DNA of 64,000 nt. It comes from Rhodovulum sp. 12E13. Lineage in GTDB: Bacteria > Pseudomonadota > Alphaproteobacteria > Rhodobacterales > Rhodobacteraceae. Shown here one piece after another: positions 11,262 through 33,538 of the stretch (position 1 is its first letter; every line of letters starts with the position of its first letter). Below the pieces are notes generated by a model. That model did not search any database and was not told the origin of the DNA. It worked only from the letters and a program-made list of their open reading frames with translations. The stretch spans positions 24,649 to 88,648 of the forward strand of contig NZ_QPLK01000019.1 of assembly GCF_003340565.1 (NCBI RefSeq), read 5' to 3'. Made by a program: the position numbers and the translations under genes.

Positions 11262-11357
11262 ATCCGTCCCGCTTGCGCGATGCGCGGCGAGGGACAGGAG
11301 GCTTGCGCGACGCAGCCGCCGGCAACCGCGAGGCGGATGGGCTCGGCAGGGCTGTCT

Positions 11358-12068
11358 TCAGGCGATGCTGTAGCCGCCGTCGATCGGCAGAACCACCCCG
11401 TTGACATAGCTTGCGGCGGGCGAGACGAGAAAGCCGACGACGTGGCCGACTTCGCTCGGGCGTCCCCAGCGGCCGGCAGGGATGCGCGCGAGGATCGGAC
11501 CGGACCGCGCCGGATCCGTCATCGCGTTCACGGACATGCGGGTATCCACCCAGCCCGGGGCGACGGCATTGACCCGCACGCCATCCCCGCCCCACGCAGC
11601 GGCGAGGGCGCGGGTGAGCGAGGCGACGGCCCCCTTGCTCGCCGAATAGGCAGGATTGCGCGAAGAGCCGAAGATCGACCACATCGACGCGAAATTCACC
11701 ACTGCGCCGCCGCGCGCCTTCAGGGCCTGCTCGAAGGCGAAGCACATCTCCTGCGTCCCGCCGAGGTTGACAGCCATCACGGCCCGGAACCCCTCGTTGG
11801 TCATCTCGCGCCCCTCGTGCCGGATCACGCCCGCGGCGTTCACTAGGGCGTCGAGCCCGTCGAAGCCCGCGGCAAAGTCGGCGATCGCCGCGCTGTCGGT
11901 CACGTCGAACTCGGTGTGCGCGTGCGCCGGGTGCTCGATCCTTTCCTCCACGTCGAGCCCCAGGGAATGGACGTGAAAGCCATCTGCCAGCAGTCGCAGG
12001 ACGCTTGCCTGCCCCAGCCCGGTGCCACCGCCCGTGACCACGGCGATGCGCTTGGTGTCGGTCGTCAT
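11358..12068 (-). CDS. Short-chain dehydrogenase/reductase (SDR)
   Basis: A 236-residue classical SDR using NAD(P)H. It has the glycine motif VTGGGTGLGQ near residues 11-20, NAAG at about 83, and the catalytic YSASK (the AYSASKGAVASL segment, about residues 143-154), followed by VNAVAPGWVDT. It oxidises or reduces a hydroxyl/keto group in the cytoplasm. It is the last gene of the long operon starting at 24175, 45 bases after the APH-type kinase gene. In this setting it may act on a 3-hydroxyacyl intermediate, like FabG-type enzymes, but the substrate is not visible. Confidence 0.88.
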   Translation of the reverse strand: MTTDTKRIAVVTGGGTGLGQASVLRLLADGFHVHSLGLDVEERIEHPAHAHTEFDVTDSAAIADFAAGFDGLDALVNAAGVIRHEGREMTNEGFRAVMAVNLGGTQEMCFAFEQALKARGGAVVNFASMWSIFGSSRNPAYSASKGAVASLTRALAAAWGGDGVRVNAVAPGWVDTRMSVNAMTDPARSGPILARIPAGRWGRPSEVGHVVGFLVSPAASYVNGVVLPIDGGYSIA

Positions 12069-12113
12069 GTCGGAAGAACCTCTCGTGCTGACCTTGCTCC
12101 TGGGGCCGTTTCG

Positions 12114-13148
12114 TCAGGGCGCTACCGGCCCGGCGAGCCCGAGAATCTCGAGCCCCCGCCGGGCGAAGACGGCGGCGAGCGGCGCGAGACGCGCGGCTTG
12201 CGGATCGGCGGCAGTGCCCTGCCGGGCGCGCTCGGCGATGCCCACGAAGATCACCGCGAAACGGAAGAAGGCGAAGGCCTCGTGGAACGGCGCGAGCGGC
12301 GGCGTTTCCGGCGCGGCGGCCGCGTAGCGGGCGACGAAGGCCTCGCGCGTCGGGATGCCGTGGGCCGTCGCGCCGGTGCCCCGGATGCCGCCGTATTCCT
12401 GGGGCGAGGTGTGCCATGTCATGCAACAGAAGCCGAGATCCGACAGCGGGTGGCCGAGGGTCGACAGCTCCCAGTCGAGGATCGCCACGACGCGGGGCTC
12501 GGCGGGATGCAGGATGAGGTTGCCGATCCGGTAGTCGCCGTGGACGATGGATTGCCGCCCGTCGTCTTCCGGCATGCGCGCGCCGAGGGCCTCCGAGAGG
12601 CGGTCGATGTCGGGGATGTCCATGCCCTCGGCCTGGCGCCACTGTCGCGTCCAGCGGCCGAGCTGTCGCTCGAAGTAATTGCCGGGCTTTCCGAAATCCG
12701 CGAGGCCGACCTCGGCCGGGTCGACGGCGTGCAGCCGGGCCAGCGTCTCGGCCATCGACAGGTAGGCGGCCTCGCGTTCCTCGGACGAGAGACCCGGCAG
12801 CGTCGCGTCGTGAAAGACGCGGCCCGGCACCCGCTCCATCAGGTAGAAGGGCGTGCCGATCACGCTCTCGTCGCCGCACCAGGCGACCGGGCGCGGCACC
12901 GGCAGGCCGGCGGGGTGCAGCGCCGAGAGCACGCGGAACTCGCGGTCGATGGCGTGGGCGCCGGGCAGCGTCGGTCCCGCGGGGCGGGTGCGCAGCACGA
13001 GGTCGGCGCCGGGCAGTGCGGCATGCCAGGTCGGGTTCGACTGGCCGCCCGCGATCGGCGCGAGCGACAGCGGGCCGTCGAGCTCGGTCGCCTCCGCGAT
13101 CCACGCCGCGAGGGCGTCGCGGCGCGCGGGGTCGGCGAGGCCGCTCAT
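12114..13148 (-). CDS. APH-type phosphotransferase, ACAD10/11 kinase-like
   Basis: A 344-residue kinase of the aminoglycoside/choline phosphotransferase fold. It has the GGQSNPTW nucleotide loop near the N-terminus, VLRTRP with the ATP-contacting lysine position, the catalytic loop VHGDYRIGNLILH and the metal site AILDWELSTLGHPLSDLG. The GKPGNYFERQLGRWTRQW segment is characteristic of the kinase domain of human ACAD10/ACAD11 and of LvaA from the Pseudomonas levulinate pathway. Those enzymes phosphorylate 4-hydroxyacyl-CoA. An ACAD10/11-type dehydrogenase gene lies two genes upstream, and a CoA ligase gene ends 1 base before this gene starts. A role in 4-hydroxyacid breakdown is therefore a reasoned inference. 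Confidence 0.85.
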   Translation of the reverse strand: MSGLADPARRDALAAWIAEATELDGPLSLAPIAGGQSNPTWHAALPGADLVLRTRPAGPTLPGAHAIDREFRVLSALHPAGLPVPRPVAWCGDESVIGTPFYLMERVPGRVFHDATLPGLSSEEREAAYLSMAETLARLHAVDPAEVGLADFGKPGNYFERQLGRWTRQWRQAEGMDIPDIDRLSEALGARMPEDDGRQSIVHGDYRIGNLILHPAEPRVVAILDWELSTLGHPLSDLGFCCMTWHTSPQEYGGIRGTGATAHGIPTREAFVARYAAAAPETPPLAPFHEAFAFFRFAVIFVGIAERARQGTAADPQAARLAPLAAVFARRGLEILGLAGPVAP

Positions 13149-13149
13149 C

Positions 13150-14778
13150 TCACTCCCCCTCGTCCGTCAGGCGCTGCCGCAGCAGGAATTTCTGGATCTT
13201 GCCGGTCGCGGTCTTCGGCAGCTCGCCGAAGCGGTAGTGGCGCGGCACCTTGAACGCCGCGAGCTGGTCCCGGCAGAACGCCTCGAGCTCGTCGGGCGCG
13301 GCCTCGCGACCCGGTTTCAGCTCGACGAAGGCGCAGGGCAACTCGCCCCACTTGGCGCTCGGCATGGCGACGACGGCAGCCAGCAGGACAGCGGGGTGCC
13401 GGTGCAGCACGCCCTCGACCTCGATCGAGGCGATGTTCTCGCCACCCGAGATGATCACGTCCTTCTCGCGGTCGGTGACCCTGATCGCGCCGTCGGTATC
13501 GCGCACCCCGAGATCGCCGGTATGGAACCAGCCGCCCGCAAAGGCGCGCTCAGTCGCGGCCGCATCGCGGTAGTAGCCGGCCATCAGCGTGTTGCCGCGC
13601 AGCAGGATCTCGCCCTGCGTCTCGCCGTCGGGCGGCGCGTCGCCGCCCGCGCCGCCCGATGCGGCGATGCGGATCGTGCCGGACGTGGCGTGGCGATACC
13701 CCTGCCGCGCGAGCCATGCCGCCTTGCGCTCGTTCGAGGCGTCCGCAAGCGCCTCGCCGGTCTGGCAGATCGAGGCCGGGCCGTAGCTTTCGGTCAGCCC
13801 GTAGAGGTGGGTGAGCTCGAAGCCGAGCGTCCCGAGCTGCTCGATCAGGTGGGCCGAGGGCGCGGCACCGCCGGTTCCGACCGCCACGCGGCCGGCCTCG
13901 CCCGCGGCCAGCCGCGCCCGGTGCGCCTCGGCCGCGGGGTCGGCCAGCAGCATGTAGAGGACGACGGGAGCGCAGCACATGTGGCTGACGCCGTGACGCG
14001 CGATCAGGTCGAAGATCGCGGCTGGCTCCACCGCGTCGAGGCAGACATGGGTGCCGCCCGCCGCGGTCACGGCCCAGGTGTGCGACCAGCCGTTGCAGTG
14101 GAACATCGGCAGCGTCCAGAGATAGCTCGTGGCCGCCCCGAAGCCGAGCGTCAGGGCGTTGCCCATCGCGTTGAGGAAGGCGCCGCGGTGGTGATAGACG
14201 GCCCCCTTGGGCGCGCCGGTCGTGCCCGATGTGTAGTTGAGGCAGATCGGCTGCCATTCCTCGGTCACGGCAGACGCATCGAGCGGCGGCGCCGCGGAAC
14301 CGCCCGTCAGCAGGTCGAGCCGGTCGGGCGCCGGCCCCTCGCCCGGATCGGCGAGCATGAGCATCCGCACGCCGGTGGCGCGTGCAGCCTCGCCCGCCGC
14401 CCCTGTGCAGGCCGGATCGCACAGCAGCAGCCGGCTTTCGGAATGGGCGAGGATGTAGCCGAGCGCGCCGGCGTCGAGCCGGATGTTGAGCGTGCTCAGC
14501 ACGGCGCCCAGCGCGGGCACGGCGAAATGCGCGGCCAGCATCTCGGGGCGGTTGCGCGCGACGATCGACACGACGTCGCCACGGCCGATGCCCGCCTCGC
14601 GCAGTGCCTCGGCCATCCGCACGGCCATCGCGTGCAGCCCGGCATAGTCCCACGTCGCATCCCGCCAGATGACGGCCGTCCGGTGCGGATGCGCCTCGGC
14701 GGCGCGCGTCAGGAAGCTCACCGGGGTCAGCGGCTGGAAGTTCGCCGCCCGCGGGCGGAGATGCGGCTCCTCGAACAT
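13150..14778 (-). CDS. Acyl-CoA synthetase (AMP-forming)
   Basis: A 542-residue ANL-superfamily ligase that activates a carboxylic acid to its acyl-CoA via an acyl-AMP. It shows the AMP-binding P-loop YTSGTTGAPKGA (about residues 170-185), the TGDLGVRDTDG motif and the VTDREKDVIISGGENI hinge. The C-terminal catalytic lysine is in PKTATGKIQK. The start overlaps the stop of the acyl-CoA dehydrogenase gene by one base (TGATG). A slightly longer start seven codons upstream is possible. In the operon it would make the acyl-CoA for the dehydrogenase and the kinase. It is comparable to LvaE or medium-chain ligases. Confidence 0.92.
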   Translation of the reverse strand: MFEEPHLRPRAANFQPLTPVSFLTRAAEAHPHRTAVIWRDATWDYAGLHAMAVRMAEALREAGIGRGDVVSIVARNRPEMLAAHFAVPALGAVLSTLNIRLDAGALGYILAHSESRLLLCDPACTGAAGEAARATGVRMLMLADPGEGPAPDRLDLLTGGSAAPPLDASAVTEEWQPICLNYTSGTTGAPKGAVYHHRGAFLNAMGNALTLGFGAATSYLWTLPMFHCNGWSHTWAVTAAGGTHVCLDAVEPAAIFDLIARHGVSHMCCAPVVLYMLLADPAAEAHRARLAAGEAGRVAVGTGGAAPSAHLIEQLGTLGFELTHLYGLTESYGPASICQTGEALADASNERKAAWLARQGYRHATSGTIRIAASGGAGGDAPPDGETQGEILLRGNTLMAGYYRDAAATERAFAGGWFHTGDLGVRDTDGAIRVTDREKDVIISGGENIASIEVEGVLHRHPAVLLAAVVAMPSAKWGELPCAFVELKPGREAAPDELEAFCRDQLAAFKVPRHYRFGELPKTATGKIQKFLLRQRLTDEGE

Positions 14779-15986
14779 CAGTCCTCCCTCACCGGCCATG
14801 ACCACAGTGCCGGCCCGCTGGCGCGAAGCTCGCGGTTGATGACCATCTTGTGGACCTCGTCGGCCCCGTCGACGAGCCGGGCCTGCCGCGCGTAGCGGTA
14901 GATCCATTCGAGCGGGGTGTCGGTGGAATAACCACGCGCCCCGTTGATCTGGATCGCCCGGTCGGCGGCCGTGTGCAGCAGGTTCGCCACGTGGATCTTG
15001 GCCATCGAAATCTCGGTGCGCGCGTAGCTGCCCCCGTCGAGCGCCCAAGCCGCCTTCATCACCAGCAGACGGCCGATCTCGATCTGCATCGCCAGATCGC
15101 CCAGCATCGTCTGGACGCTCTCGCGCTCGGCCAGCCGCACGCCGAAGCCCTCGCGCCGCTCGGCATACTCGGTCGCGATCTCGACGCAGCGCTTCGCCAG
15201 CCCCAGCCACCGCATGCAGTGCGTCAGCCGGGCCGGGCCGAGGCGCGTCTGCGTCACCTTGAGGCCCCGGCCGACGCCGCCGAGCACGGCCTCGTCGGGC
15301 ACTGTGAGCCCGTCGAACTCGAGCTCGCAATGGCCGCCGTGCTCCTCGGGGCCCATGATCCCGATGCGCCGCACGATATGCCAGCCGGGGTCGTCGCGGT
15401 GAAAGAGGAACGCCGTCAGCCCGCTGCGCGGGTCGTCCGAGGTGCGGGCGACGACGATGAAATGGGCGGCCTCGCCGGCGCCGGTGATGTACCACTTGCG
15501 CCCGGTGATCGCCCAGCCGTCGCCGCGCCGCTCGGCCCGCGTCAGCATCATGCCGGGGTCCGAGCCGCCGCCCGGATGCGGCTCGGTCATGGCGAAGGCC
15601 GAGCGCACCTCGCCATCGCGGATCGGGTCGAGCCAGCGCCGCTTCTGCGCCTCGGTGCCGAGGGCGGCGAGCACCATCATGTTGCCGTCGTCGGGCGCGG
15701 CCGAGTTGAACGCGACGGGGCCGAAGATCGAGCGGTTCATCGCCTCGTAGGCCACCGCCATGCCCACCCGGCTCAGCCCGCCGCCGCCCTCCTCGCGCGG
15801 CATCTGCAGGCTCCAGAGGCCAGCCGCGCGCGCCTTGGCACGGACCTCTTCCAGCAGGTCGAGGCGAATGTTCTGGTGGTCGTCGAAGCTGGCCGGGTCG
15901 GCCTCGAGCGGCAGCAGCTCGGTCTCGACGAAATCGGCTATGCCGGCGCGGATGCGCTCGATCTCGGCGGGGATGCGAAAGTCCAT
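14778..15986 (-). CDS. Acyl-CoA dehydrogenase, ACAD10/11 type
   Basis: A 402-residue FAD enzyme. It has the FAD-contact motif FAMTEPHPGGGSDP (about residues 133-146), the WYITGAGEA segment, and the C-terminal NGARGYSTDTPLEW region followed by DGADEVHK. The last motif resembles the DGPDEVH of ACAD10/11 and LvaC rather than the catalytic-glutamate loop of ordinary acyl-CoA dehydrogenases. In the known pathway this type of enzyme eliminates phosphate from a 4-phosphoacyl-CoA. It lies between an SDR gene (10-base gap) and the CoA ligase gene (one-base overlap). Confidence 0.9.
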   Translation of the reverse strand: MDFRIPAEIERIRAGIADFVETELLPLEADPASFDDHQNIRLDLLEEVRAKARAAGLWSLQMPREEGGGGLSRVGMAVAYEAMNRSIFGPVAFNSAAPDDGNMMVLAALGTEAQKRRWLDPIRDGEVRSAFAMTEPHPGGGSDPGMMLTRAERRGDGWAITGRKWYITGAGEAAHFIVVARTSDDPRSGLTAFLFHRDDPGWHIVRRIGIMGPEEHGGHCELEFDGLTVPDEAVLGGVGRGLKVTQTRLGPARLTHCMRWLGLAKRCVEIATEYAERREGFGVRLAERESVQTMLGDLAMQIEIGRLLVMKAAWALDGGSYARTEISMAKIHVANLLHTAADRAIQINGARGYSTDTPLEWIYRYARQARLVDGADEVHKMVINRELRASGPALWSWPVRED

Positions 15987-15995
15987 TGCGCTCTC

Positions 15996-16760
15996 CTACA
16001 GGCTCGACACGAGGTGGCCGCCGTCGACGACCAGCTCGGCCCCGGTCATGAAGCGCCCGGCATCCGAGGCGAGCAGCAACAGGGCCCCGTCGAGGTCGGC
16101 CGGCGTGCCGAGGCGGCGTTGCGGGACGCGGCGGATCAGGGCGCGGCCCCGCTCGGTCTGGAAGAAGTCGCGGTTGATGTCGGTCTCGACATAGCCGGGG
16201 CAGAGCGCGTTGACGCGGATGCCGTCGCGCGCCCATTCCAGCGCCATCGCCCGCGTGAGCTGGACGAGCCCCGCCTTCGAGGCGGCATAGGCGCCGACGC
16301 CGCCCGCCACGCGCAGGCCGAGGATCGAGGCGACGTTGACGATCGTTCCCCCCTGCCCCGCCGACCGCATGGCCGCCGCCGCGGCCTGCGCCACGAGGAA
16401 GGGGGCGCGCAGGTTCACCGCCATCGTGTCGTCCCAGTCGGCGGCGGAGAGGTCGCCCAAAGCGCCCGGCCGCGAGATTCCGGCATTGTTGATGACGATG
16501 TCGAAAGCCGCGGCGGCGTCGAAGAACGCCGCGACCGCCCTTTCGTCGGCGACGTCGAGCACAGCGGCCTCGGCCGCGCCGCCGCGCTCGGTGATCCCGG
16601 CGCAGGCGGCGTCGAGCGCCGCGCGGCGGCGTGCCGCCAGCGTCACCTGCGCGCCGCGAGACGCGAGCACGCCCGCGAAATGCCGGCCTAGGCCCGACGA
16701 CGCGCCGGTGATCAGGGCGCGCCGGCCCGCCACGTCGAAGGGATCGCCGGGCGCGGTCAC
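15996..16760 (-). CDS. SDR family oxidoreductase (LvaD-like position)
   Basis: A 254-residue classical SDR. It has TGASSGLGRH near residue 18, NNAGISRPG at about 88-96, the catalytic Tyr/Lys in YAASKAGLVQL, and LCPGYVETDINRDFF. The start is GTG at 16760, overlapping the stop of the alcohol dehydrogenase gene (GTGA). With the kinase, ACAD and ligase genes that follow, it reproduces the gene content of the levulinate (lva) cluster, where an SDR reduces or oxidises the 4-position. Which direction it works in here cannot be said. Confidence 0.88.
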   Translation of the reverse strand: MTAPGDPFDVAGRRALITGASSGLGRHFAGVLASRGAQVTLAARRRAALDAACAGITERGGAAEAAVLDVADERAVAAFFDAAAAFDIVINNAGISRPGALGDLSAADWDDTMAVNLRAPFLVAQAAAAAMRSAGQGGTIVNVASILGLRVAGGVGAYAASKAGLVQLTRAMALEWARDGIRVNALCPGYVETDINRDFFQTERGRALIRRVPQRRLGTPADLDGALLLLASDAGRFMTGAELVVDGGHLVSSL

Positions 16761-17896
16761 ACGGTCGCTCCCAGCGCCTCGGCCCGCAGGATCGCCGCGC
16801 CAACCGCGGCCCGGTCGAGCGGGGCGGCGAAGTTGGCGAGGTGGGGCGCGGTCATGGTCAGGCGGGCCATCTCGTCGATCTCGGCGTTGCTCGGCTCGGC
16901 CATGCCGAGGTCGGCGAGCTGCACCGGCAGGCCGATGCGGCGGTAGAAACGGGCGAGCGACAGGATCTCGTCGTCGCCCCGCCCCTCGGCGGCCATGTGC
17001 ACGAGCGTCGCCCAGGCCACCTGCGCGCCGTGGATCGCGTCGCGCGCCCCGCGCGCCCTGACAAGGCCCCGCGTGAGCGAATGGGCCAGCGACAGCCCGC
17101 CGTTCTCGAAGCCGAGCCCGCTCATTAGCACGACGGCCTCGACCACGTGTTCGAGATCGGGCGTCGACTCTCCGGCCTCGCAGGCGGCCAGCGCAGCCTC
17201 GGCGTGGCGCAGGATCGTGGCATGGGCGCAGTCGGCGATGGCCAGCGCCGTCAGCAGGGGGCGCGTGCCGAACGGCGTGAGGCCGGTGCCTGCCATGCAG
17301 CCCTCGGCCTCGAACTTCTTGGCGATGGCGTCGCCGATGCCCGCCCGCAGGAAATGCGCGGGCGCGGCGGCGATCAGCGCCGTGTCGACCAGCACGCAGG
17401 CGGGGCTGGCCTCCATCCGGTCGACCGCGACCATCACGTGGTCGTCGTCGTAGATCGCGACGGCCGCGCTGGTGGGGCTGTCGTTCGAGGCGATGGTGGG
17501 CACCGTGACGACGGGCGCGCGCAGGAGCATGGCGACGCCCTTGGCCGCGTCGAGCGACTTGCCGCCGCCGACGCCGACGACGACGCTGGCCGCCTCGGCA
17601 CCTCGCGCAAGCGCGGCGATGGCGGGCCGGGTGATCTCGCCCTCGAGCGTGCGGAAGGCCGGGCGCAGTCCCGCCCCCGCCAGAAGGGCCTCGAGCCGGG
17701 GCCGCAACATCGCCATGACATGCGCGTCGCCGACCACGAGAGGCGCCGGGCCGAAAGGCGCGGCGACCTCGCCGAGCAGGTCGAGCGCGCCCGGCCCCTG
17801 GTGATAGCGCCCCGGTCCGCCGAACAGGCGGATGCCGCCGTCGGGCTCGGGCAGGCCCGCCGGCGGGGCGCCCGTGATCGCCCCCGTCGCCGTCAC
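16757..17896 (-). CDS. Iron-containing alcohol dehydrogenase, glycerol-dehydrogenase-like
   Basis: A 379-residue type III alcohol dehydrogenase. It has the nucleotide loop GVGGGKSLDAAK (residues 108-119) and the GldA-like TIASNDSPTSAAVAIY (residues 134-149). The metal ligands are visible as D189 in AGIGDAIAKKFE, H272 in SLAHSLTRG and H289 in AIHGAQVAW. It interconverts an alcohol and an aldehyde or ketone with NAD(P)H. The frame runs on upstream, but the GTG at 17896, forming a GTGA overlap with the cupin gene's stop, is the likely start. The split transketolase genes upstream suggest a short hydroxyaldehyde or dihydroxyacetone-like substrate. Confidence 0.88.
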   Translation of the reverse strand: MTATGAITGAPPAGLPEPDGGIRLFGGPGRYHQGPGALDLLGEVAAPFGPAPLVVGDAHVMAMLRPRLEALLAGAGLRPAFRTLEGEITRPAIAALARGAEAASVVVGVGGGKSLDAAKGVAMLLRAPVVTVPTIASNDSPTSAAVAIYDDDHVMVAVDRMEASPACVLVDTALIAAAPAHFLRAGIGDAIAKKFEAEGCMAGTGLTPFGTRPLLTALAIADCAHATILRHAEAALAACEAGESTPDLEHVVEAVVLMSGLGFENGGLSLAHSLTRGLVRARGARDAIHGAQVAWATLVHMAAEGRGDDEILSLARFYRRIGLPVQLADLGMAEPSNAEIDEMARLTMTAPHLANFAAPLDRAAVGAAILRAEALGATV

Positions 17897-18438
17897 CGCA
17901 TCAGGCTCTCGGCATGGGCCGCGCCGAGGCCGATCGCCTCGTAGTGGGCCCGTGCGGCATCGAGCTTGGTGAACACGTCTTCGTAGCCCATCGCCCGGCC
18001 CTCGGGATCGACGTAGACGTATCCGCCGGTGACGTGGAACAACGTCACCATCTCGTCGACGCCGTCGGGCACGACGAGGGTGTGCGTCTCGCCCGGCGGC
18101 TCGAAGGCGTAAGCGCCCGGTACCGCCTGCCAGTCGTGCTCGAGGTAGTGCCAGCGCCCGCGCAGCGTGATCGCATGGACCGGGCCGGCATGGCGGTGGC
18201 GCGACAGCACGCCCGAATTGCGTACGCGCAGCAGATTCACGTAATAGCCCTGGCTGACGCACAGCACGAGCGGGCGGAACCAGACGCCCTCGGCCTGCGG
18301 CACCCAGCTCTGCTCGTCGCCGTCGAGGTCGAGCGCGCCGGGCGCGAAGATGTCCGGCATCATGCCGAAGGGCTGCGGCCGGGCGTAGGGCTGCTTGGCG
18401 GGGTCCATGCGCCCCGCGTTCCGGTCGAGCTGGTTCAT
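17893..18438 (-). CDS. Cupin protein, 2,4'-dihydroxyacetophenone dioxygenase family
   Basis: A 181-residue single-domain cupin. The first metal motif is RHRHAGPVHAITLRGRW (about residues 78-94) and the second is EPPGETHTLVVP (about 112-123), giving the His/Glu ligand set of a mononuclear Fe site. Overall the protein resembles the 2,4'-dihydroxyacetophenone dioxygenase family, whose founding member cleaves a C-C bond next to a carbonyl. Many family members are uncharacterised, and here a beta-diketone or hydroxyketone substrate is only a guess. The start follows AGGAGG and overlaps the transketolase stop by ATGA. Confidence 0.75.
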   Translation of the reverse strand: MNQLDRNAGRMDPAKQPYARPQPFGMMPDIFAPGALDLDGDEQSWVPQAEGVWFRPLVLCVSQGYYVNLLRVRNSGVLSRHRHAGPVHAITLRGRWHYLEHDWQAVPGAYAFEPPGETHTLVVPDGVDEMVTLFHVTGGYVYVDPEGRAMGYEDVFTKLDAARAHYEAIGLGAAHAESLMR

Positions 18439-19442
18439 GTCGGGCCTCCTGCGCCTGCTCCATCCTGTCGTATCGCGGACTCGAAGGCGGGCAGGTCGAC
18501 GCCGTATTTCGCCTCGAGGTATTCCTGAGAGCCGCATTCGAAGAAGCTGTCGGCGAGGCCGATGCGCGTCATCGGGCGGTGCAGCCCCGCCTCGTAGAGC
18601 GCCTCGATTACCAGCGTCGTCAGCCCGCCGGTCGTCTTGTGGTTCTCGGCCACGATCAGCCGCTGGTGGTCGCGCGCGAACGAGAGCACGGCGGCCGCGT
18701 CGAACGGCTTGATGGTGCTCAGGTGCAGCACGCTTGGATCGTGGCCCTCGGCGGCGGTCGAGCGGCAGGCTTCGAGGGCGCGGGCGCTCATGTAGCCGGT
18801 GGCAATGATGCCCACCCGGCCGTCGCCCGCGCGCAGCACCTGCCCCTTGCCAAAGGTGAAGCGGTAGTCGTCTCCGAGCTCGACCGGCACCTTGCCCCGC
18901 AGATTTCGCACGTAGACCGTGCCGGGGATGTCGGCCGCCGCGCGCACCACCTGCTTGAGCTCGGTCGCGTCGCAGGGGTCGATCACCGCGAGATCGGCGA
19001 TGCCGCGCATCATGTTGAGATCCTCGGTCGCCTGGTGGGTGGCGCCGTAGCCGTTCACGAGGCCGGGCATGCCGGCGAAGATCTTCACGTTGGCCTTCGA
19101 ATGGGCGCAGGCGATGGCGACGAAATCGTAGGCGCGGCGGGTGATGAACACCGAGTAGGTCGTGCAGAAGGCGATCTTGCCGACCTTCGACAGGCCCGCC
19201 GCCACCATCATCAGGTTCTGCTCGGCCATGCCGACGTTGAAGAAGCGGTCGGGATGGGCGTCGCGGAACGGCAGGATATCGCTGTAGCGGCCCATGTCGG
19301 CGGTGAGCCCGACGATCTCGGGGCGCTCGTGGCCCAGCTCGGCCAGCGTGCGGCCGAAGGGGGCGAGCTCGGTCTGCTTGCCGGCCACCTCGACGATCTC
19401 GCCCATGCCGCGGGTGCGGTTCGCGATCGGTGCGTCAGGCAT
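18435..19442 (-). CDS. Transketolase C-terminal subunit
   Basis: A 335-residue protein holding the pyrimidine-binding and C-terminal domains of transketolase. The thiamine-activating glutamate is in NVGMAEQNLMMVAAGL. It complements the N-terminal subunit encoded just upstream; the two genes overlap by eight bases. Together they should form a thiamine-diphosphate enzyme moving a two-carbon ketol unit. Split transketolases are often dedicated catabolic versions (for example apulose phosphate or sulfosugar transketolases), so a substrate outside the pentose phosphate pathway is plausible. Confidence 0.9.
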   Translation of the reverse strand: MPDAPIANRTRGMGEIVEVAGKQTELAPFGRTLAELGHERPEIVGLTADMGRYSDILPFRDAHPDRFFNVGMAEQNLMMVAAGLSKVGKIAFCTTYSVFITRRAYDFVAIACAHSKANVKIFAGMPGLVNGYGATHQATEDLNMMRGIADLAVIDPCDATELKQVVRAAADIPGTVYVRNLRGKVPVELGDDYRFTFGKGQVLRAGDGRVGIIATGYMSARALEACRSTAAEGHDPSVLHLSTIKPFDAAAVLSFARDHQRLIVAENHKTTGGLTTLVIEALYEAGLHRPMTRIGLADSFFECGSQEYLEAKYGVDLPAFESAIRQDGAGAGGPT

Positions 19443-20298
19443 TGCCGGCCTCCAGTTCGGCGATCAGCGCGTCCCATTCGTCGTCGGCGATACGCACGAA
19501 ATGCGCCCGCTCGCGCGCCACGATGGTCGGCACGCCGTGACCCGGCGTGGTGCGCATGACGATGGCCTTGGGCCGTCCGTCGGCGGCCCGCGCACCCGCG
19601 AGCGCCGCGACGAGGGCGCCCATGTCGTTGCCATCCACCTCGGTCGTGTCCCAGCCGAAGGCGGCCATCTTGTCGGCCACCGGCTCGATCGCCACGGTCA
19701 CCGGCCCGTCGGCCTGGATGCCGTTGCAGTCGATCAGCGCCACGAGGTTGTCGCAGCGGAAGGTGGCCGCGCCCATCGCCGCCTCCCAGGTCGAGCCCTC
19801 CTGCAGTTCGCCGTCGGAGAACTCGCAGAAGGCCCGGGCGGGCGAGCCGTCCATCCGCAGGCCCATCGCCATGCCGACCGCCTGGCCGAGGCCGTGACCG
19901 AGCGAGCCGCCGACGATCTCGACACCGACCGTCTCGTCGAAGGTGCTCATCGGCAGGGCCGAGCCGTTGAGGCCGTAGGAGGGCAGCAGCGCCTCGTCCA
20001 TGTAGCCGGCCTCGGCCAGCACGGCATACATGGCGATCGAGTAGTGACCGGTCGACAGCAGGAAGCGGTCACGATCCGGCCAGTCGGGGCGCGCGCTGTC
20101 GTGGCGCATCTCGTGGAAGTAGAGGGCGGCGAGGCAGTCGGCCATCGCCAGCCCCTGCGCGATGTAGCCCTCGCCCTTGCCGGCGGCCATGCCCATCATC
20201 TTGCGGCGCAGGGCGAAGGCACGCCGGCGCAGCTCGTCGAGATCGGGGGCGCCGGGCGGGTGGTTGCTCGGGGCGGCCGTGGCCGGGGATGTGGTCAT
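19435..20298 (-). CDS. Transketolase N-terminal subunit
   Basis: A 287-residue thiamine-diphosphate-binding subunit. GHYSIAMYAVLAEAGY (about residues 84-99) and LGHGLGQAVGMAMG are typical. The cofactor motif reads FSDGELQEGSTWEAAM...N rather than the usual GDGE: the first glycine is replaced by serine. It partners the C-terminal subunit. The start at 20298 follows a purine-rich AGAGAGA site; codons further upstream in the frame do not match transketolase. It lies 25 bases after the SMP-30 gene. Confidence 0.9.
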   Translation of the reverse strand: MTTSPATAAPSNHPPGAPDLDELRRRAFALRRKMMGMAAGKGEGYIAQGLAMADCLAALYFHEMRHDSARPDWPDRDRFLLSTGHYSIAMYAVLAEAGYMDEALLPSYGLNGSALPMSTFDETVGVEIVGGSLGHGLGQAVGMAMGLRMDGSPARAFCEFSDGELQEGSTWEAAMGAATFRCDNLVALIDCNGIQADGPVTVAIEPVADKMAAFGWDTTEVDGNDMGALVAALAGARAADGRPKAIVMRTTPGHGVPTIVARERAHFVRIADDEWDALIAELEAGNA

Positions 20299-20323
20299 GC
20301 GGTCTCTCTCTTGCAGGGCTCTC

Positions 20324-21247
20324 TCACGACGCGGGCTGTGGCGGCACGGGCAGGCCCGGCCTGGCCCAGGGCATGCGCACGAGCCGCCCGGTGGTCGACA
20401 GCGTGACGTAGGCCACCTCCGGGTCGCGGAGATCGAAACAGATGTTGGTGGTGTAGGGATCGGGCAGCGCGACGCGCTCGACGAGCCCACCCCGTGGCGA
20501 GATCACGACGATCCCGCCGAAGCGCAGGGTGGCCACGGCCACGTTGCCACCCGCCTCGACGGCGAGGCTGTCGTAGCGCTGGAAACCGGGCAGGCCGGCC
20601 ACGAGTTCGCCACCGGTGGGCGAGGGCCAGTCGGCCTGCCGCAGCACGCCGGGGCCCTCGACGGGCCACGACCAGAGCCGCCCGCTCGACGTCTCGGCGA
20701 CGTAGAGGGTGGCGCCGTCGGGCGACAGGCCGATTCCGTTGGGCCCGATCAGGGGAAAGGCGGCCTCGACGATGCGCGTGCCGTCGCAGGCGGCGTGGTA
20801 AACCGCACCGAAATCGAGCGTCCGCCCCGAGCGGTGCCCATGGTCGGTGAACCAGATCCCGCCATGGGCGTCGCACACGAGATCGTTCGGCGCGCGCAGC
20901 GGCGTGCCCTCGCACTCGGTGTAGAGCGTCTCGACGGCGCCGGTCCCGGGATCGACCCGCTGGATCGAGCCGCCCGAATTGTCGGGCGCGCGGCCTGTCG
21001 GGCGCCAACCGTTCTCCGTCTCCCACGAGAAGCCGCCGTTGTTGGCGACGTAGAGCATGCCGTCGGCACCGAGCGCGGCGCCGTTCGGCCCGCCGCCCGT
21101 CTGGGCGAGGCGCGTGGCGCCGCCGTCGGGCGCGATCCTCGTCAGGCAGCCGCGGGCGATCTCGGTCACCACGACGCTGCCGTCGGGCATCGCGACGGGG
21201 CCTTCGGGAAAGGCGAGGCCCTCGGCCATCGTCTCGAACCGGGTCAT
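20324..21247 (-). CDS. SMP-30/gluconolactonase family lactonase
   Basis: A 307-residue six-bladed propeller of the SMP-30/gluconolactonase/LRE family. The metal-ligand positions appear as E in AFPEGPVAM (residue 15), N in RAPNDLVCD, and D in RYDSLAVE. It probably hydrolyses a sugar or hydroxy-acid lactone to the open acid. No signal peptide is seen, so it is cytoplasmic. The start overlaps the TctA stop by ATGA. Placed between the importer and transketolase genes, it suggests the imported compound is, or becomes, a lactone. Confidence 0.88.
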   Translation of the reverse strand: MTRFETMAEGLAFPEGPVAMPDGSVVVTEIARGCLTRIAPDGGATRLAQTGGGPNGAALGADGMLYVANNGGFSWETENGWRPTGRAPDNSGGSIQRVDPGTGAVETLYTECEGTPLRAPNDLVCDAHGGIWFTDHGHRSGRTLDFGAVYHAACDGTRIVEAAFPLIGPNGIGLSPDGATLYVAETSSGRLWSWPVEGPGVLRQADWPSPTGGELVAGLPGFQRYDSLAVEAGGNVAVATLRFGGIVVISPRGGLVERVALPDPYTTNICFDLRDPEVAYVTLSTTGRLVRMPWARPGLPVPPQPAS

Positions 21248-22734
21248 CGCGCCATCTCCCGCTCCGCCCGCGCCCGACCGCGATGCCGCCAGGCCGAGAA
21301 GACCAGCGAGGCGGCGGCGAAGGCAAGGATGGACGCGGTCAGCGGTTGCAACAGCCACTCGTAGCTGCCCTGGTGCAGGATCATCGAGCGGCGGAAATTC
21401 TCCTCGGCGATCGGGCCGACGATCACGGCGATCAGGAGCGGGGCGACCGGGTAGCGCGCCTTGGTCATCAGGTAGCCGAGCACCCCGGCGAGCAGCATCA
21501 CCAGCACGTCGAACGTGGTGTTGCGCACGGCATAGGCGCCCACGACGCAGAACAGGATGACGATGGGCCAAAGATACACCGACGGGATCCGGATGACCCG
21601 GATCCACAGCCGGATCCCGAGCAGGCCGATGGCGAGAAGGCACAGATAGGCGAGCGCCATCCCCAGGAACGAGCCGTAGATCAGCTCGGGTGCCGTGTTG
21701 AAGAGGCCGGGCCCCGGCTGCACCCCGGCGATCAGGAGCGCGCCCAGCAGCACCGCGGCCTGCGTGTTGCCGGGGATGCCCAGCGCGAACGTTGGAACGA
21801 GCGAGCCCATGTTGCTGGCATTGTTCGCCGCCTCAGCGGCCACCACGCCGCGCGGCTCTCCCTGCCCGAAGGGCGCCGCGGCGCCGCCGAAGCGCTTGGC
21901 CTCGTTGTAGGCGATGTAGCCGCCGATATCGCCGCCGACGCCGGGCAGCATCCCCGTGCCGAAACCGATCGCGCTTGCGCCGGCCGTGGTCGGCAGCAGA
22001 CGCCGCGCCCAGCCCGCGCCGATGCCGAAGCCGCCGATCTCGCGGCGATCGAGGCGCGAGGCGATGGCGCGTTCGAGCTGGGTCAGCGCTTCGGCCATGC
22101 CGAAGATCCCGACCAGCAGCGGGATGAGCTGGATGCCGCCCGACAGGTCGGAACTGCCGAACGACAGGCGCGGAAAGCCCGCAACCGGGTCGAACCCGAT
22201 CGAAGCGATCAGCAGGCCAAGCGCGGCGGCGACGAACCCCTTGGAAATCTGCCCGCCCCCGATCGAGGCGATGATGGTCAGGGCGAGGACGGCGATGGCG
22301 AAGTATTCCGGGGTGCCGAACGACAGCGCGTAGCGCGCGAGCACCGGGGCGAAGAAGGCCAGCAGCGCCGTGCCGATCAGCCCGCCCGCGACGCTGGCAA
22401 GCAGCGACAGCGTCAGGGCCTCGCCGGCCCGACCCTTCTGCGCCATGGGGTAGCCGTCGAGCGTGGTCGCAGCCGACGAAGGCGTGCCGGGCGTATTGAT
22501 GAGCACGGCCGGAATCGCGCCGGCGTAGCAGGCGCCGTTGTAGATGCCGAGCAGAAGAACGAGGCCGGTCAACGGGTCGAGGGTGAAGGTGAAGGGCAGG
22601 AACATCGCCATGCCGACCGTCGCCGACAGGCCGGGGATCGCCCCGATCGAGACGCCGAGCAGCACCCCGATCGGGACCATGGCCAGCACCGACCAGTCCT
22701 GCAGGACGGCGAAGCCCTCGGCCCAGCCGCTCAT
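21244..22734 (-). CDS. tctA: Tripartite tricarboxylate transporter, large permease TctA
   Basis: A 496-residue membrane protein with about 12 helices. It carries the two TctA hallmark regions: GLSATVGMAMFLPFTF with NTPGTPSSAATTLDG near residues 35-95, and GMLPGVGGDIGGYIAYNEAKRFG. It forms the channel of a secondary tripartite importer for carboxylates, together with TctB and the periplasmic TctC. The true start (22734) overlaps the TctB stop by ATGA; the frame is open further upstream without meaning. Confidence 0.95.
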   Translation of the reverse strand: MSGWAEGFAVLQDWSVLAMVPIGVLLGVSIGAIPGLSATVGMAMFLPFTFTLDPLTGLVLLLGIYNGACYAGAIPAVLINTPGTPSSAATTLDGYPMAQKGRAGEALTLSLLASVAGGLIGTALLAFFAPVLARYALSFGTPEYFAIAVLALTIIASIGGGQISKGFVAAALGLLIASIGFDPVAGFPRLSFGSSDLSGGIQLIPLLVGIFGMAEALTQLERAIASRLDRREIGGFGIGAGWARRLLPTTAGASAIGFGTGMLPGVGGDIGGYIAYNEAKRFGGAAAPFGQGEPRGVVAAEAANNASNMGSLVPTFALGIPGNTQAAVLLGALLIAGVQPGPGLFNTAPELIYGSFLGMALAYLCLLAIGLLGIRLWIRVIRIPSVYLWPIVILFCVVGAYAVRNTTFDVLVMLLAGVLGYLMTKARYPVAPLLIAVIVGPIAEENFRRSMILHQGSYEWLLQPLTASILAFAAASLVFSAWRHRGRARAEREMAR

Positions 22735-23192
22735 ATCAGCATGCCCCCGATGCGCGTGGCCGGCAGGGGCACCGAGAGAAGCACGCGAAACAGAAGGTAG
22801 GTGAGCGCCGTCAGGCCGGCCGGCAGCGTCGCCAGCGCGAGCGGCGAGCGCACCCCCAGGAGCACCATCTGGCAGGTCAGGAAGGCGAAGGTCGAGGCGG
22901 GAAAGCCCCAGCGCTCCAGCGTTGCGAGATAGGCGAGGGTCAGGCCGATGGTGCCGGCGACGCGGAGCAGCATCGCCCCCCGTGGCATCCCGTCGTGCGG
23001 CTCGCGGGCGACGAGCAGGCGCAGGCCGAGGCCCACAAGCGCGGCGCCGGCGGCCATCGGAAGGAAGGCCGGCCCGGGGTCGTTGGGCAGCATTCCCGGC
23101 CGGATGCCCATGGCGGCCCAGAGTGCGCCCGCCCCCAGCAGGATCACCAGCAGGGGCGGGACGACAGAGCCCGTCTGAGGCGTCGACGGCAT
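22731..23192 (-). CDS. tctB: Tripartite tricarboxylate transporter, small permease TctB
   Basis: A 153-residue protein with four membrane helices, the usual size and layout of TctB (DUF1468). It lies five bases after the TctC gene and overlaps TctA by four bases. It assists TctA. Sequence conservation is weak in this family, so the call rests on size, helix pattern and gene order. Confidence 0.9.
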   Translation of the reverse strand: MPSTPQTGSVVPPLLVILLGAGALWAAMGIRPGMLPNDPGPAFLPMAAGAALVGLGLRLLVAREPHDGMPRGAMLLRVAGTIGLTLAYLATLERWGFPASTFAFLTCQMVLLGVRSPLALATLPAGLTALTYLLFRVLLSVPLPATRIGGMLI

Positions 23193-23197
23193 GGACT

Positions 23198-24175
23198 TTA
23201 CTGCGCGAGGCCCAACTGCTCGAGAAGCTCGCCATAGCGCTGATACTCGGCGGCGAGGTAGGCGTCGTAGTCGGCGGCGCCGAGATAGGCCGGGTTCACC
23301 CCGCTCTGCTCGACATAGGCGTTGAACGAATCTGAGCGGAAGGCGGCCTCGAAGCAGGAATTGAGCGCCTCCACCCGGTCGGCGGGCGTGCCGGCCGGCA
23401 CCGCGAGGCCGAAGATCGAGCCGCCGGTGACGTCGATGCCCTGCTCCGCGAGTGTCGGCGTGTCGGGCAGGATCGCGATGCGGCTGTCGCTTGCGACGCC
23501 GAGCGGCACCAGCGCCTCCTCGGCCACCTGGCCCACGACGTTCGAGGCGTTCGTGACCAGCAGATCGACCTCGCCGCTCAGGGCCGCCGGAATCGCCATG
23601 GCGTCGCCCTGGTAGGGGATGTTGACGAGCTGCCCCGTCACGCCCGTGTTGCGCGCCATGTCCTCGAAGGTGATCGCGTAGGGGCTGGCCGGACCGGAGG
23701 TGGCGACCCGGATAGTCTCGCCGCCCTTGGCCGCGTCGACGACGTCCTGCAGCGAATCGTAGGGCGGGTCAGGCGTGACGAAGAAACCGTGGGGGTCGAA
23801 GACGAAGCGCATGACGGCGCTGAAGTCCTGGTGCGTGATGTCGCTCAGGCCCATGTGCGAGACGGCGCTGATCTCCGTCGGCGTCGTGGCGATCGTGTAG
23901 CCGTCGGCGTCGGAGTTGCGCACCGTGTCGAGCGCGATCACCCCCGAGCCGCCCGGCTGGTTGGTGATGACGATCTCGGTGCCGCAGGTCTCCTCGGCCG
24001 CGGCGGCGAGCGCGCGCGTGTTCGTGTCGGTCGAGCCCCCGGCGGCGAAGCCGATGACGATGCGGATCGGCTCGGACGGGAATTGCTGGGCCGCGACGGC
24101 TGTTGCAGCCGTCGTGGCCAGAAGCGCGGACAAGCCCGTGCAGAGGGCGCGGACGCCCCGGTTCATCGTGGTCAT
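23198..24175 (-). CDS. tctC: Tripartite tricarboxylate transporter substrate-binding protein TctC
   Basis: A 325-residue periplasmic binding protein of the Bug/TctC family. The signal peptide covers roughly residues 1-30 (cleavage near AVAAQQ). The mature start has PIRIVIGFAAGGSTDTNTRALA, with NQPGGSGVIALD further on; both are family landmarks. It binds a carboxylate and feeds TctAB. The start at 24175 follows a strong GGGAGGAGA site. It is the first gene of the 13-gene operon and the only binding-protein gene here without a 3' hairpin. Confidence 0.95.
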   Translation of the reverse strand: MTTMNRGVRALCTGLSALLATTAATAVAAQQFPSEPIRIVIGFAAGGSTDTNTRALAAAAEETCGTEIVITNQPGGSGVIALDTVRNSDADGYTIATTPTEISAVSHMGLSDITHQDFSAVMRFVFDPHGFFVTPDPPYDSLQDVVDAAKGGETIRVATSGPASPYAITFEDMARNTGVTGQLVNIPYQGDAMAIPAALSGEVDLLVTNASNVVGQVAEEALVPLGVASDSRIAILPDTPTLAEQGIDVTGGSIFGLAVPAGTPADRVEALNSCFEAAFRSDSFNAYVEQSGVNPAYLGAADYDAYLAAEYQRYGELLEQLGLAQ

Positions 24176-24220
24176 GCTGTCTCCTCCCTTGAGGCGCCCT
24201 GTCGGGCCGCCTTCAATTTG

Positions 24221-24253
24221 TCCGCAATCCGGATGCATAGTCCGTATTGTGAA
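24221..24253. promoter_or_regulatory. Paired operator-like sequence upstream of tctC and the IclR gene
   Basis: Two boxes 20 bases apart: TCCGCAATCCGGA (24221-24233) and TCCGTATTGTGAA (24241-24253). The first has TCCG-N5-CGGA symmetry. The whole also contains a nine-base inverted repeat, CAATCCGGA versus TCCGTATTG, with one mismatch around a seven-base centre. The position between the divergent tctC and iclR-type genes and the two-helical-turn spacing fit binding of an IclR dimer pair. Confidence 0.5.
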
Positions 24254-24332
24254 CAGTCGGCAGATTGGCTTTCGTTTCGAGCCCTGTCAACATCGATCGG
24301 CGGGGCATCGCTGAGGGGCGGGAGACGGCGAC

Positions 24333-25190
24333 ATGGCACAAGACGGGGCCGAACGGGGCGTGCGGCATCCGGCCGGGGGCGGGACGGCGCGGTCCGGGCC
24401 GGCACGGGCGCGGCAGGGGCAGACCGAAAGTGACCCGAAGAACTACGTGGCGTCGGTCGAGAAGGCGGTACGCCTGCTGGAGCTTTTCGACGAGGGCGAA
24501 CCGGTCCTTTCCCTGCCGACGATCGTCGCGCGGAGCGGCTACACGCGCACGACGGCCTATCGGCTGCTGAGCACGCTGGAGCGGGTCGGCTGGCTGTCCC
24601 GCAGCGGGGCGGGCTATCACCTGACACTGCGCGTTTTCCGCCTGGGCGCAAGCGCTGGCAACGCGCTGAAACTACGCGAGATCGCGGCCGAAGTGCTGGT
24701 CGATCTCGCGGCCCGGGGCGGCGAGACGGCCTATCTGATCGTGCCGGACGGCCTGCGCGGCGTGTGTCTGGAGCGCGTCGAGGGCCCTTCGCTCGTGCGG
24801 GTGATGGTGCTCGACGTGGGCAAGTCCCTGCCCCTTCATGTCGGCGGCGGACCCACCGCCCTGCTAGCCCATCGCGACGACCTGCTCGAAGAGGTGTTCG
24901 CCTCGGGCCCGTTGCAGACGATGACCGGTGCGCCGCTGACGCCCGATGAGCTGCGCGACACGCTGCGCGGGATCCGCGAGCGAGGCTATTCGCGCAGCGC
25001 CGAGGACGTGACCGCGAGCGTTGGCGCCTTCGGCGCCCCGGTTTTCGACGCGCAGGGCACCGCCATCGCCGCCGTGAGCGTGGGAGGCATGCTGAAGACG
25101 CTGACCGAGAAGGAGTCGAAGCTGTCGGCCGCCCTTTGCGACGCGGCGGCGAGCATCTCTGCGCGGCTCGGCCATCGCCCCGGCACCTGA
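24333..25190 (+). CDS. IclR family transcriptional regulator
   Basis: A 285-residue regulator. A disordered basic N-terminus (residues 1-38) is followed by the winged helix (about 40-105), with SLPTIVARSGYTRTTAYRLLSTLERVGWL as recognition region. The IclR effector domain then has SLVRVMVLDVGKSLPLHVGGGPTALLA. It is transcribed away from the 13-gene operon and shares its promoter region, so it most likely controls that operon in response to the imported acid or a breakdown product. It ends 37 bases before the convergent HAD gene. Confidence 0.92.
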   Translation: MAQDGAERGVRHPAGGGTARSGPARARQGQTESDPKNYVASVEKAVRLLELFDEGEPVLSLPTIVARSGYTRTTAYRLLSTLERVGWLSRSGAGYHLTLRVFRLGASAGNALKLREIAAEVLVDLAARGGETAYLIVPDGLRGVCLERVEGPSLVRVMVLDVGKSLPLHVGGGPTALLAHRDDLLEEVFASGPLQTMTGAPLTPDELRDTLRGIRERGYSRSAEDVTASVGAFGAPVFDAQGTAIAAVSVGGMLKTLTEKESKLSAALCDAAASISARLGHRPGT

Positions 25191-28990: not shown

Positions 28991-28993
28991 CGC

Positions 28994-30142: not shown

Positions 30143-30152
30143 CGGGTCCTCC

Positions 30153-31918: not shown

Positions 31919-31948
31919 GAGGGCTCCGAGCGTTCGACCATCCGGGGG

Positions 31949-31981
31949 CGGCCGCCCGCCCGAGCGGGGGGCGGGCGGCCG
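31949..31981 (-). promoter_or_regulatory. Intercistronic hairpin after sugar-binding-protein gene
   Basis: A perfect 13-base-pair stem: CGGCCGCCCGCCC at 31949-31961 and its complement at 31969-31981, with a seven-base loop. It starts 12 bases after the stop of the binding-protein gene (31993). No T-run follows in the direction of transcription. It probably protects or partly terminates the message before the permease genes. Confidence 0.6.
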
Positions 31982-31992
31982 TTTCGGGGCGG

Positions 31993-33489: not shown

Positions 33490-33538
33490 TTTCTCCTCCC
33501 TTGCAGGTTCGGGGCGTGACCGCCCGTCTGCGCGTCGC

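What the first reader, a model, noticed from the sequence alone, without database searches (positions are those of the whole stretch)
11358..24175. A 13-gene IclR-linked operon combining TctCBA, lactonase, split transketolase, dioxygenase-like cupin and an acyl-CoA module
Thirteen genes on one strand are joined by overlaps or gaps of at most about 45 bases. The parts suggest stepwise breakdown of an imported carboxylate or lactone: opening by SMP-30, cleavage or C2 transfer by transketolase or the cupin, redox by the iron alcohol dehydrogenase and SDRs, then CoA activation and ACAD/kinase steps. I know no named pathway with this exact set. The pathway idea is inference; the gene layout is seen directly.
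Basis: partly seen in the sequence, partly recalled or inferred. Interest (0 to 1): 0.7.

Follow-up and report, generated by a model that had tools for sequence, protein, structure and literature searches.

The report
Operon splitting alpha-ketols into acyl-CoA
Thirteen tightly packed bacterial genes sit behind one predicted control site found only once in the genome, and together they would likely import a sugar-like hydroxy-ketone acid, cut off a two-carbon piece with an unusual two-part transketolase, and feed the rest into fatty-acid-type breakdown, a combination that the literature searches made here did not find described.

Summary
The layout is confirmed: 13 minus-strand genes (11358-24175), gaps -8 to +45, divergent IclR. 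New here: (1) one operator-promoter before tctC, conserved in six loci and unique in the 4.53 Mb genome, so both halves likely share one control point. (2) The acyl-CoA half is a 4-hydroxyacyl-CoA (lva/ACAD10-11-type) module: the ACAD carries the diagnostic HCMR motif and catalytic Asp. (3) The split transketolase belongs to a rare subfamily whose phosphate-site positions are replaced (Tyr at E. coli S385, D469 and H26), so it probably takes unphosphorylated ketols, as the cortisol-cleaving DesAB is thought to. (4) The cupin keeps the tested catalytic residues of 2,4'-dihydroxyacetophenone dioxygenase but has a more polar pocket. (5) In 12 of 29 related loci the transketolase core lies by an acyl-CoA module of one of three unrelated kinds, 7 of them this kind, so the halves recur together; 17 of 29 show none. 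SMP-30 instead tracks a sugar-kinase operon just upstream. Best reading: catabolism of an imported alpha-ketol/gamma-hydroxy acid. The substrate is unknown and all activities are inferred.

The parts
24219..24255 (-). predicted IclR operator, 37-base imperfect palindrome
   Evidence: invariant at 21 of 37 positions in six loci, 28-29 bases after a TTGAC(A/T) box; core pattern once in the whole genome at up to 3 mismatches
24285..24290 (-). TTGACA, -35-like box
   Evidence: conserved spacing to the operator; not listed by the strict promoter scan
24333..25190 (+). IclR-family regulator, divergent
   Evidence: HTH_IclR and IclR_C; orthologues of 55-88% in L002, L003, L004, L005, L030
23198..24175 (-). 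TctC substrate-binding protein
   Evidence: PF03401
22731..23192 (-). TctB
   Evidence: PF07331
21244..22734 (-). TctA
   Evidence: PF01970
20324..21247 (-). SMP-30/gluconolactonase-like, predicted lactonase
   Evidence: PF08450; co-occurs with the HAD/FGGY operon in the same 15 of 29 loci
19435..20298 (-). split transketolase, N chain (TKN)
   Evidence: PF00456; GEGY, Tyr45 at the E. coli H26 position
18435..19442 (-). split transketolase, C chain (TKC)
   Evidence: PF02779, PF02780; Tyr53, Met125, Tyr132 in place of phosphate-site residues
17893..18438 (-). cupin of the 2,4'-dihydroxyacetophenone dioxygenase kind
   Evidence: PF12973; 4p9g E 1.8e-30, three iron His kept
16757..17896 (-). GldA-type (glycerol dehydrogenase-like) alcohol dehydrogenase
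   Evidence: PF00465; NCBIfam PRK09423 327 bits, cut-off 336; PDB glycerol dehydrogenases
15996..16760 (-). SDR1, predicted 4-oxoacyl-CoA reductase of the acyl-CoA module
   Evidence: PF13561; next to ACAD in many alphaproteobacteria
14778..15986 (-). ACAD10/11-LvaC-type acyl-CoA dehydrogenase
   Evidence: HCMR motif and catalytic Asp aligned to ACAD11 8v3u
13150..14778 (-). AMP-forming acyl-CoA ligase
   Evidence: PF00501; PRK08162 657.5 bits, just under its cut-off of 677
12114..13148 (-). APH-fold kinase, predicted 4-hydroxyacyl-CoA kinase
   Evidence: PF01636; 3dxp and the ACAD11 kinase domain are the best PDB matches
11358..12068 (-). SDR2, predicted carbinol/ketol dehydrogenase
   Evidence: PF13561; in 11 of 29 transketolase loci
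25228..25914 (-). HAD phosphatase of the neighbouring sugar operon (start inferred from the 4-base overlap)
   Evidence: 61% to L010 HAD; PF13419
25911..27452 (-). FGGY kinase 2
   Evidence: 65% to L007
27449..28990 (-). FGGY kinase 1
   Evidence: PF00370, PF02782; XylB-like below cut-off
28994..33540 (-). CUT1-type ABC importer: ATPase, two permeases, binding protein
   Evidence: 67-85% to L007; ABC_tran

Best explanation
The 13 genes are packed as one unit behind one predicted IclR operator, and the unit would likely import a small acid carrying an alpha-ketol or its carbinol, remove the two-carbon ketol end with a predicted phosphate-independent split transketolase, and send the remaining acid through a predicted 4-hydroxyacyl-CoA route into beta-oxidation. 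Shown: the layout, the single operator sequence, the families, the residue signatures and the recurrence of the modules. Inferred steps: TctCBA brings in the acid; SDR2 and the GldA-type dehydrogenase interconvert carbinol and ketone next to a CH2OH; the transketolase moves HOCH2-CO- to a central aldehyde; the cupin splits a remaining R-CO-CH2OH with O2 into R-COOH and formate; SMP-30 opens the gamma-lactone that 4-hydroxy acids form; the ligase makes the CoA ester; SDR1 reduces a 4-oxo group; the APH-type kinase phosphorylates the 4-OH; the ACAD eliminates phosphate to a 2-enoyl-CoA. The true substrate is not identified.
For: One conserved operator, once in the genome. ACAD signature and ACAD11-type kinase. 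Transketolase phosphate-site positions replaced in 29 of 29 close relatives; the S385Y change is reported to clash with substrate phosphate (PMC5073344 passages). Cupin catalytic residues kept. Acyl-CoA modules of three kinds by the same core in 12 of 29 loci plus the three plasmid loci read. Baeyer-Villiger enzymes tend to stand in for the cupin.
Against: 17 of 29 loci show no acyl-CoA module in the stretch held. None of 45 ACAD-centred stretches from other genomes shows a transketolase or cupin. The core is joined to sugar importers and FGGY kinases in 15 of 29 loci. SMP-30 follows the sugar operon, not TctCBA. Three of 20 genomes or records hold both cupin and BVMO. The strict scan finds no sigma-70 promoter. 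No activity, ligand or transcript was measured.
Confidence: 0.42

Rival explanations
1. A sugar or polyol pathway: transketolase, Fe-ADH, SDR and cupin degrade an unphosphorylated ketose, perhaps a branched one (apiose-like or 2-C-methylerythritol-like) whose C2 removal leaves dihydroxyacetone or acetol for the cupin, and the lva-type half is a passenger with its own substrate.
For: CUT1 importer, two FGGY kinases and HAD by the core in 15 of 29 loci; CUT2-type importers in others. SDR2-cupin pairs stand in sugar-acid clusters of other genomes.
Against: One operator covers both halves; acyl-CoA modules of three kinds recur at the core; TctCBA or branched-chain-amino-acid-type importers replace the sugar importers in several loci. 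No paper on such a route found.
Confidence: 0.25
2. Two unrelated gene sets under one promoter: the halves share expression but not a substrate, brought together by gene transfer.
For: Gene content varies widely between loci; each half is found without the other.
Against: 4-base overlaps and one unique operator; nearly the same gene set in L030, a different family by name.
Confidence: 0.13
3. Aromatic side-chain catabolism, such as arylglycerols or aryl hydroxyketones from lignin, with the cupin acting as a true 2,4'-dihydroxyacetophenone dioxygenase.
For: Cupin homology; engineered S385Y/D469T/R520Q transketolase takes aromatic aldehydes (PMC5073344 passages).
Against: 8 of 15 pocket residues differ, several to polar ones; no aromatic ring gene in the operon; a 4-hydroxyacyl-CoA module does not suit a benzoate.
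Confidence: 0.08
4. Steroid side-chain removal, as by DesAB.
For: DesAB is a split transketolase in an operon with a dehydrogenase and a transporter (PMC3735941 passages).
Against: Sugar and acid importers around the core and no steroid ring gene seen in the operon. DesAB sequences were not compared.
Confidence: 0.04

Closest known systems
lva operon of Pseudomonas putida (levulinate) and animal ACAD10/ACAD11
   Same: Kinase plus ACAD with HCMR and catalytic Asp, CoA ligase and SDR (PMC12440821 and PMC11342911 passages)
   Different: Here joined to a transketolase, cupin and Tct importer; no LvaB-like gene is among the 13 by Pfam, and LvaB itself was not compared
DesABCD steroid-17,20-desmolase operon of Clostridium scindens
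   Same: Split transketolase with a dehydrogenase and transporter, thought to remove a two-carbon ketol (PMC3735941 abstract and passages)
   Different: Aerobic-type oxygenase and acyl-CoA genes here; sequences not compared
Carboxydothermus hydrogenoformans split transketolase
   Same: Closest solved C chain, E 9.6e-64
   Different: It keeps the GEDG stretch, and its paper says that it lacks the known aromatic-specificity substitutions (PMC7661550 passages); here S385 and D469 positions are Tyr
2,4'-dihydroxyacetophenone dioxygenase (4p9g, 5bpx)
   Same: Three iron His, Tyr93, Glu108, Glu112
   Different: 8 of 15 pocket residues changed
Same operon in HLUCCA09 (L002) and Pseudohoeflea suaedae (L030)
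   Same: Same genes and operator
   Different: In L030 SMP-30 sits with the HAD gene beyond IclR

Membership tests
lva/ACAD10-11 4-hydroxyacyl-CoA module | ACAD with Arg626, HCMR (His634, Arg637) and catalytic Asp753 (mouse ACAD11 numbers) | tested here: met
   aligned to 8v3u; importance from PMC12440821 passages
lva/ACAD10-11 4-hydroxyacyl-CoA module | APH-fold kinase related to the ACAD11 kinase domain, with catalytic Asp and following Asn | tested here: met
   8v3v E 2e-67; HGDYRIGN aligned to HGDFKLDN
lva/ACAD10-11 4-hydroxyacyl-CoA module | CoA ligase and SDR of the LvaE and LvaD kinds | tested here: inconclusive
   ligase and SDR families present; not compared with LvaE or LvaD
lva/ACAD10-11 4-hydroxyacyl-CoA module | LvaB partner protein | not tested
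   one search used a wrong accession and is void
lva/ACAD10-11 4-hydroxyacyl-CoA module | phosphorylation and elimination of 4-hydroxyacyl-CoA | not testable with these tools
   needs enzyme assay
Transketolase (pentose-phosphate type) | three transketolase domains, here on two chains | tested here: met
   PF00456 and PF02779+PF02780 over cut-off
Transketolase (pentose-phosphate type) | phosphate and hydroxyl contacts R358, S385, H461, D469 and H26 (roles partly recalled) | tested here: not met
   Tyr53, Tyr132, Tyr45, no His at 461, no Arg at 358; R520 kept
Steroid-17,20-desmolase DesAB | sequence relation to DesA/DesB | not tested
   no DesAB sequence in the collections used
Steroid-17,20-desmolase DesAB | C2 removal from cortisol | not testable with these tools
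   needs enzyme assay
2,4'-dihydroxyacetophenone dioxygenase | His76, His78, His114 iron site with Tyr93 and Glu108 | tested here: met
2,4'-dihydroxyacetophenone dioxygenase | hydrophobic aryl pocket of 15 named residues | tested here: not met
   7 kept, 8 changed
GldA-type dehydrogenase | metal-binding Asp, His, His | tested here: met
   GIGDA, GGLSLAH and DAIHG align with GldA (which residues bind metal is recalled)

The most novel reading that the evidence does not exclude
A new aerobic catabolic route: a phosphate-blind split transketolase strips a C2 ketol from an unphosphorylated imported acid, an alpha-hydroxyketone-cleaving oxygenase (cupin, or a Baeyer-Villiger enzyme in relatives) trims the remainder, and interchangeable acyl-CoA modules, here a kinase-ACAD pair that erases a 4-hydroxyl, finish the job. 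It would be a general ketol-desmolase strategy of which the gut steroid desmolase DesAB is one case.
Probability: 0.3. Interest if true: 0.72.

Novelty: new variant of a known kind. Interest (0 to 1): 0.5.

Why it matters
If right, transketolase chemistry is used well outside sugar phosphates, to cut free ketols in soil, marine and plant-associated bacteria. The residue signature (Tyr at three sites) would let such enzymes be recognised among the many split genes now annotated simply as 'transketolase'. It would be a natural counterpart to laboratory-evolved transketolases, and would tie the recently found ACAD10/11 chemistry to a defined bacterial operon whose substrate can be found by growth tests.

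Tried and rejected
Pathways considered and dropped. D-apionate/apulose routes were recalled; the search for apulose/apionate with transketolase returned 0 papers, and the 15 listed of 179 papers on apiose or transketolase showed nothing on this operon (listing only). 2-C-methylerythritol catabolism: none among the 15 listed of 53 papers (listing only). The sulfoquinovose transketolase route (seen in listings) has no counterpart to the acyl-CoA half that I know of.

Strict cupin/Baeyer-Villiger exclusivity, which the +/-10 kb loci suggested (17 cupin, 7 BVMO, 0 both, 5 neither of 29), was weakened. Over 20 genomes or records, chosen by me from 32 loci, 8 have cupin only, 8 BVMO only, 3 both (those of L014, L016, L017) and 1 neither (Fisher p 0.0098, species not independent; two of the 20 are plasmid records alone). 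The L017 cupin lies just outside the stretch held. The Cnuibacter plasmid also holds both, about 19 kb apart.

My first reading (a notebook entry, onward) that His26 became Glu43 was wrong; alignment with the genome's own transketolase puts Tyr45 there. A single origin of the transketolase-linked ACADs is neither shown nor excluded. The PDB search with the CUT1 binding protein found nothing; the TctC search gave matches but no ligand lead. The strict promoter scan found no sigma-70 site, and 4 terminator-like sites against 4.2 expected. No structure prediction and no homologous-protein search was run. Literature searches (open-access library only) that might have shown the combination: 0 papers; 2; 11; 15 listed of 88; 2, off-topic by title; 0.
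Full report
Observation. Thirteen minus-strand genes between 11358 and 24175 were rebuilt from the sequence; the junctions are +5, -4, -4, +25, -8, -4, -4, -4, +9, -1, +1 and +45 bases. Pfam gives TctC, TctB, TctA, SMP-30 (SGL), Transketolase_N, Transket_pyr+Transketolase_C, Cupin_7, Fe-ADH, SDR, acyl-CoA dehydrogenase, AMP-binding ligase, APH, SDR. IclR is divergent at 24333-25190.

Control. Six loci with an orthologous IclR gene (window, L002, L004, L005, L030 before tctC; L003 before the transketolase) share a TTGAC(A/T) box and, 28-29 bases further, a 37-base imperfect palindrome of which 21 positions are invariant. Its 26-base core pattern occurs once in the window and once in the whole 4.53 Mb assembly at up to three mismatches, at this promoter. 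The strict sigma-70 scan lists no promoter in 9500-26000, and terminator-like sites are at chance level (4 found, 4.2 expected). So the two halves likely share one control point, and the neighbouring sugar operon does not carry it. That IclR binds this site is inferred.

Relatives. A scan of one genome per species with the transketolase C chain gave 29 loci (exact peptide patterns, so biased to close relatives and a lower bound). TKN and a GldA-type dehydrogenase are within the stretch held in 29 of 29; the cupin in 17; SMP-30 in 15, the same 15 that hold the HAD gene of the CUT1-FGGY-FGGY-HAD operon; SDR2 in 11; TctCBA in 4. In L011 and L012 the dehydrogenase and cupin belong to a second, diverged transketolase set on the other strand. 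Such close transketolases are rare: in 244 genomes of the order the next best N chain is 54% identical, and in 398 genomes of the phylum the next best C chain is 56%. In the window the CUT1-FGGY-FGGY-HAD operon lies just past IclR (25228-33540).

The acyl-CoA half. Against mouse ACAD11 (8v3u) the ACAD conserves Arg626, Arg631, His634-Cys-Met-Arg637 and the catalytic Asp753. Passages of PMC12440821 say that Arg626, His634, Arg637 and the Asp are special to ACAD10/11 and LvaC and contact the 4-phospho group (Arg631 is general to ACADs); passages of PMC11342911 describe the kinase-then-elimination chemistry. The kinase's best solved matches are 3dxp and the ACAD11 kinase domain. The ACAD is common by itself: 55 of 337 class genomes have it at E<=1e-90, 44 of them (the window's own included) at 60% identity or more by my count of the list. 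In 16 longer stretches from such genomes SDR1 is present in 12 and an APH-type kinase in 8; in these 16 and 29 shorter ones no transketolase or cupin was seen. Near the transketolase a signature ACAD occurs in 7 of 29 loci: L002, L009, L013, L030, and more distant ones in L015, L026 (both HVMR for HCMR) and L017 (cut by the locus end, so its Asp was not seen). In a tree of 37 ACADs the five rows labelled as transketolase-linked (window, L002, L009, L013, L030) need three label changes; one origin is not excluded. L015 and L026 were in that tree without the label.

Other acyl-CoA modules at the same core. Stappia indica (L006) and a Variovorax plasmid (L194) share a ligase, quinone-oxidoreductase-like, two-ACAD and enoyl-CoA hydratase set; its large ACAD lacks the signature. 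L014, L015, L017, L021, L025, L027 and the plasmids of Cnuibacter (L193) and a marine Paracoccaceae (L195) have an ADP-forming CoA ligase with an SCP-type thiolase, in most with a DUF35-like partner. Together 12 of 29 loci, plus the 3 plasmid loci read for this, have some acyl-CoA module; 17 of 29 show none in the stretch held. This is the best sign that the core delivers a carboxylic acid.

The transketolase. The C chain is nearest the C. hydrogenoformans split enzyme among solved chains. Aligned to human transketolase and to the genome's own canonical tkt, Tyr53 stands at E. coli S385, Tyr132 at D469, Met125 (Gly124 in the ungapped alignment) at H461, no Arg at R358, and Tyr45 of the N chain at H26; Arg182 keeps R520. 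The human-to-E. coli numbering is recalled. 29 of 29 relatives have Tyr53, Met125, Tyr132 and GEGY (the L028 chain reads in two pieces). A wider sister set has mostly Leu and Tyr at the Met125 and Tyr132 positions and GQGY; transketolases of that identity range are on many plasmids (188 of 190 records under 60%). [quoted passage not shown] PMC7661550 passages list R358, S385, D469 and R520 as specificity sites. I infer a phosphate-independent enzyme. DesAB of C. scindens is a split transketolase hypothesised to remove cortisol's C2 side chain (abstract and passages of PMC3735941; passages of PMC12876203).

The cupin. It matches 2,4'-dihydroxyacetophenone dioxygenase at E 1.8e-30 and keeps His76/78/114, Tyr93, Glu108 and Glu112, while 8 of the 15 pocket residues named in PMC4219425 (passages) differ, several becoming polar. 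A more polar alpha-hydroxyketone is therefore likely. Baeyer-Villiger enzymes (motif FxGxxxHxxxW found in 6 of 7 inspected) tend to stand in for it: over 20 genomes or records, 8 cupin only, 8 BVMO only, 3 both, 1 neither. In other genomes of the same family an SDR2-like gene and a cupin of about 60% stand in clusters with KDG-kinase, DGOK or KDPGal-aldolase genes.

Mechanism and rivals. The proposed order of steps is in Best explanation. Its first half resembles desABCD in logic, its second half lva. A sugar or polyol route with a passenger acyl-CoA module is the main rival, because the core is so often joined to sugar importers and FGGY kinases. Aromatic and steroid routes fit less well. SMP-30's place is uncertain: in L030 it sits with the HAD gene on the far side of IclR.

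Novelty and verdict. No description of this combination was found in the searches made (listings and abstract starts, open-access library only). The parts are known families; the regulated combination and the transketolase subfamily signature look new. I class it as a new variant of a known kind (catabolic operon), interest 0.5.

Noticed in passing
25228-33540 (minus strand): A CUT1-type ABC importer, two FGGY kinases and a HAD phosphatase form a conserved operon that in 15 of 29 relatives also carries SMP-30 and adjoins the same transketolase; its sugar is unknown.
   Followed up: partly
L107-L117, L124-L144; plasmid hits: A wider sister family of split transketolases (about 42-49% to the C chain, GQGY, Leu/Tyr) often stands with one SDR gene; named plasmid examples add a TRAP or MFS transporter.
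   Followed up: partly
L060, L064, L070, L072, L074: An SDR2-like gene and a cupin of about 60% identity stand in clusters with KDG-kinase or DGOK/KDPGal-aldolase genes without a transketolase; L060 also has an ACAD11-type ACAD and kinase nearby.
   Followed up: partly
L011 and L012, 11420-20608: A second, diverged set (SDR2, TKN, TKC, Fe-ADH, cupin, branched-chain-type ABC importer) lies back to back with the first in two Microvirga genomes.
   Followed up: partly
L028, 6004-10977: FGGY2, SMP-30 and the transketolase C chain each align in two pieces in Rhizobium sp. G21, as if by sequencing errors or decay.
   Followed up: no
L196 (Sinorhizobium meliloti pSymA), 9001-9516: A cupin of 69% identity stands near transposase genes without the rest of the cluster in the annotated stretch.
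   Followed up: no
9444-11216 (plus strand): The ORF next to the operon's end, on the other strand, has a partial asparaginase-type domain match (PF00710) in a 590-residue frame.
   Followed up: no
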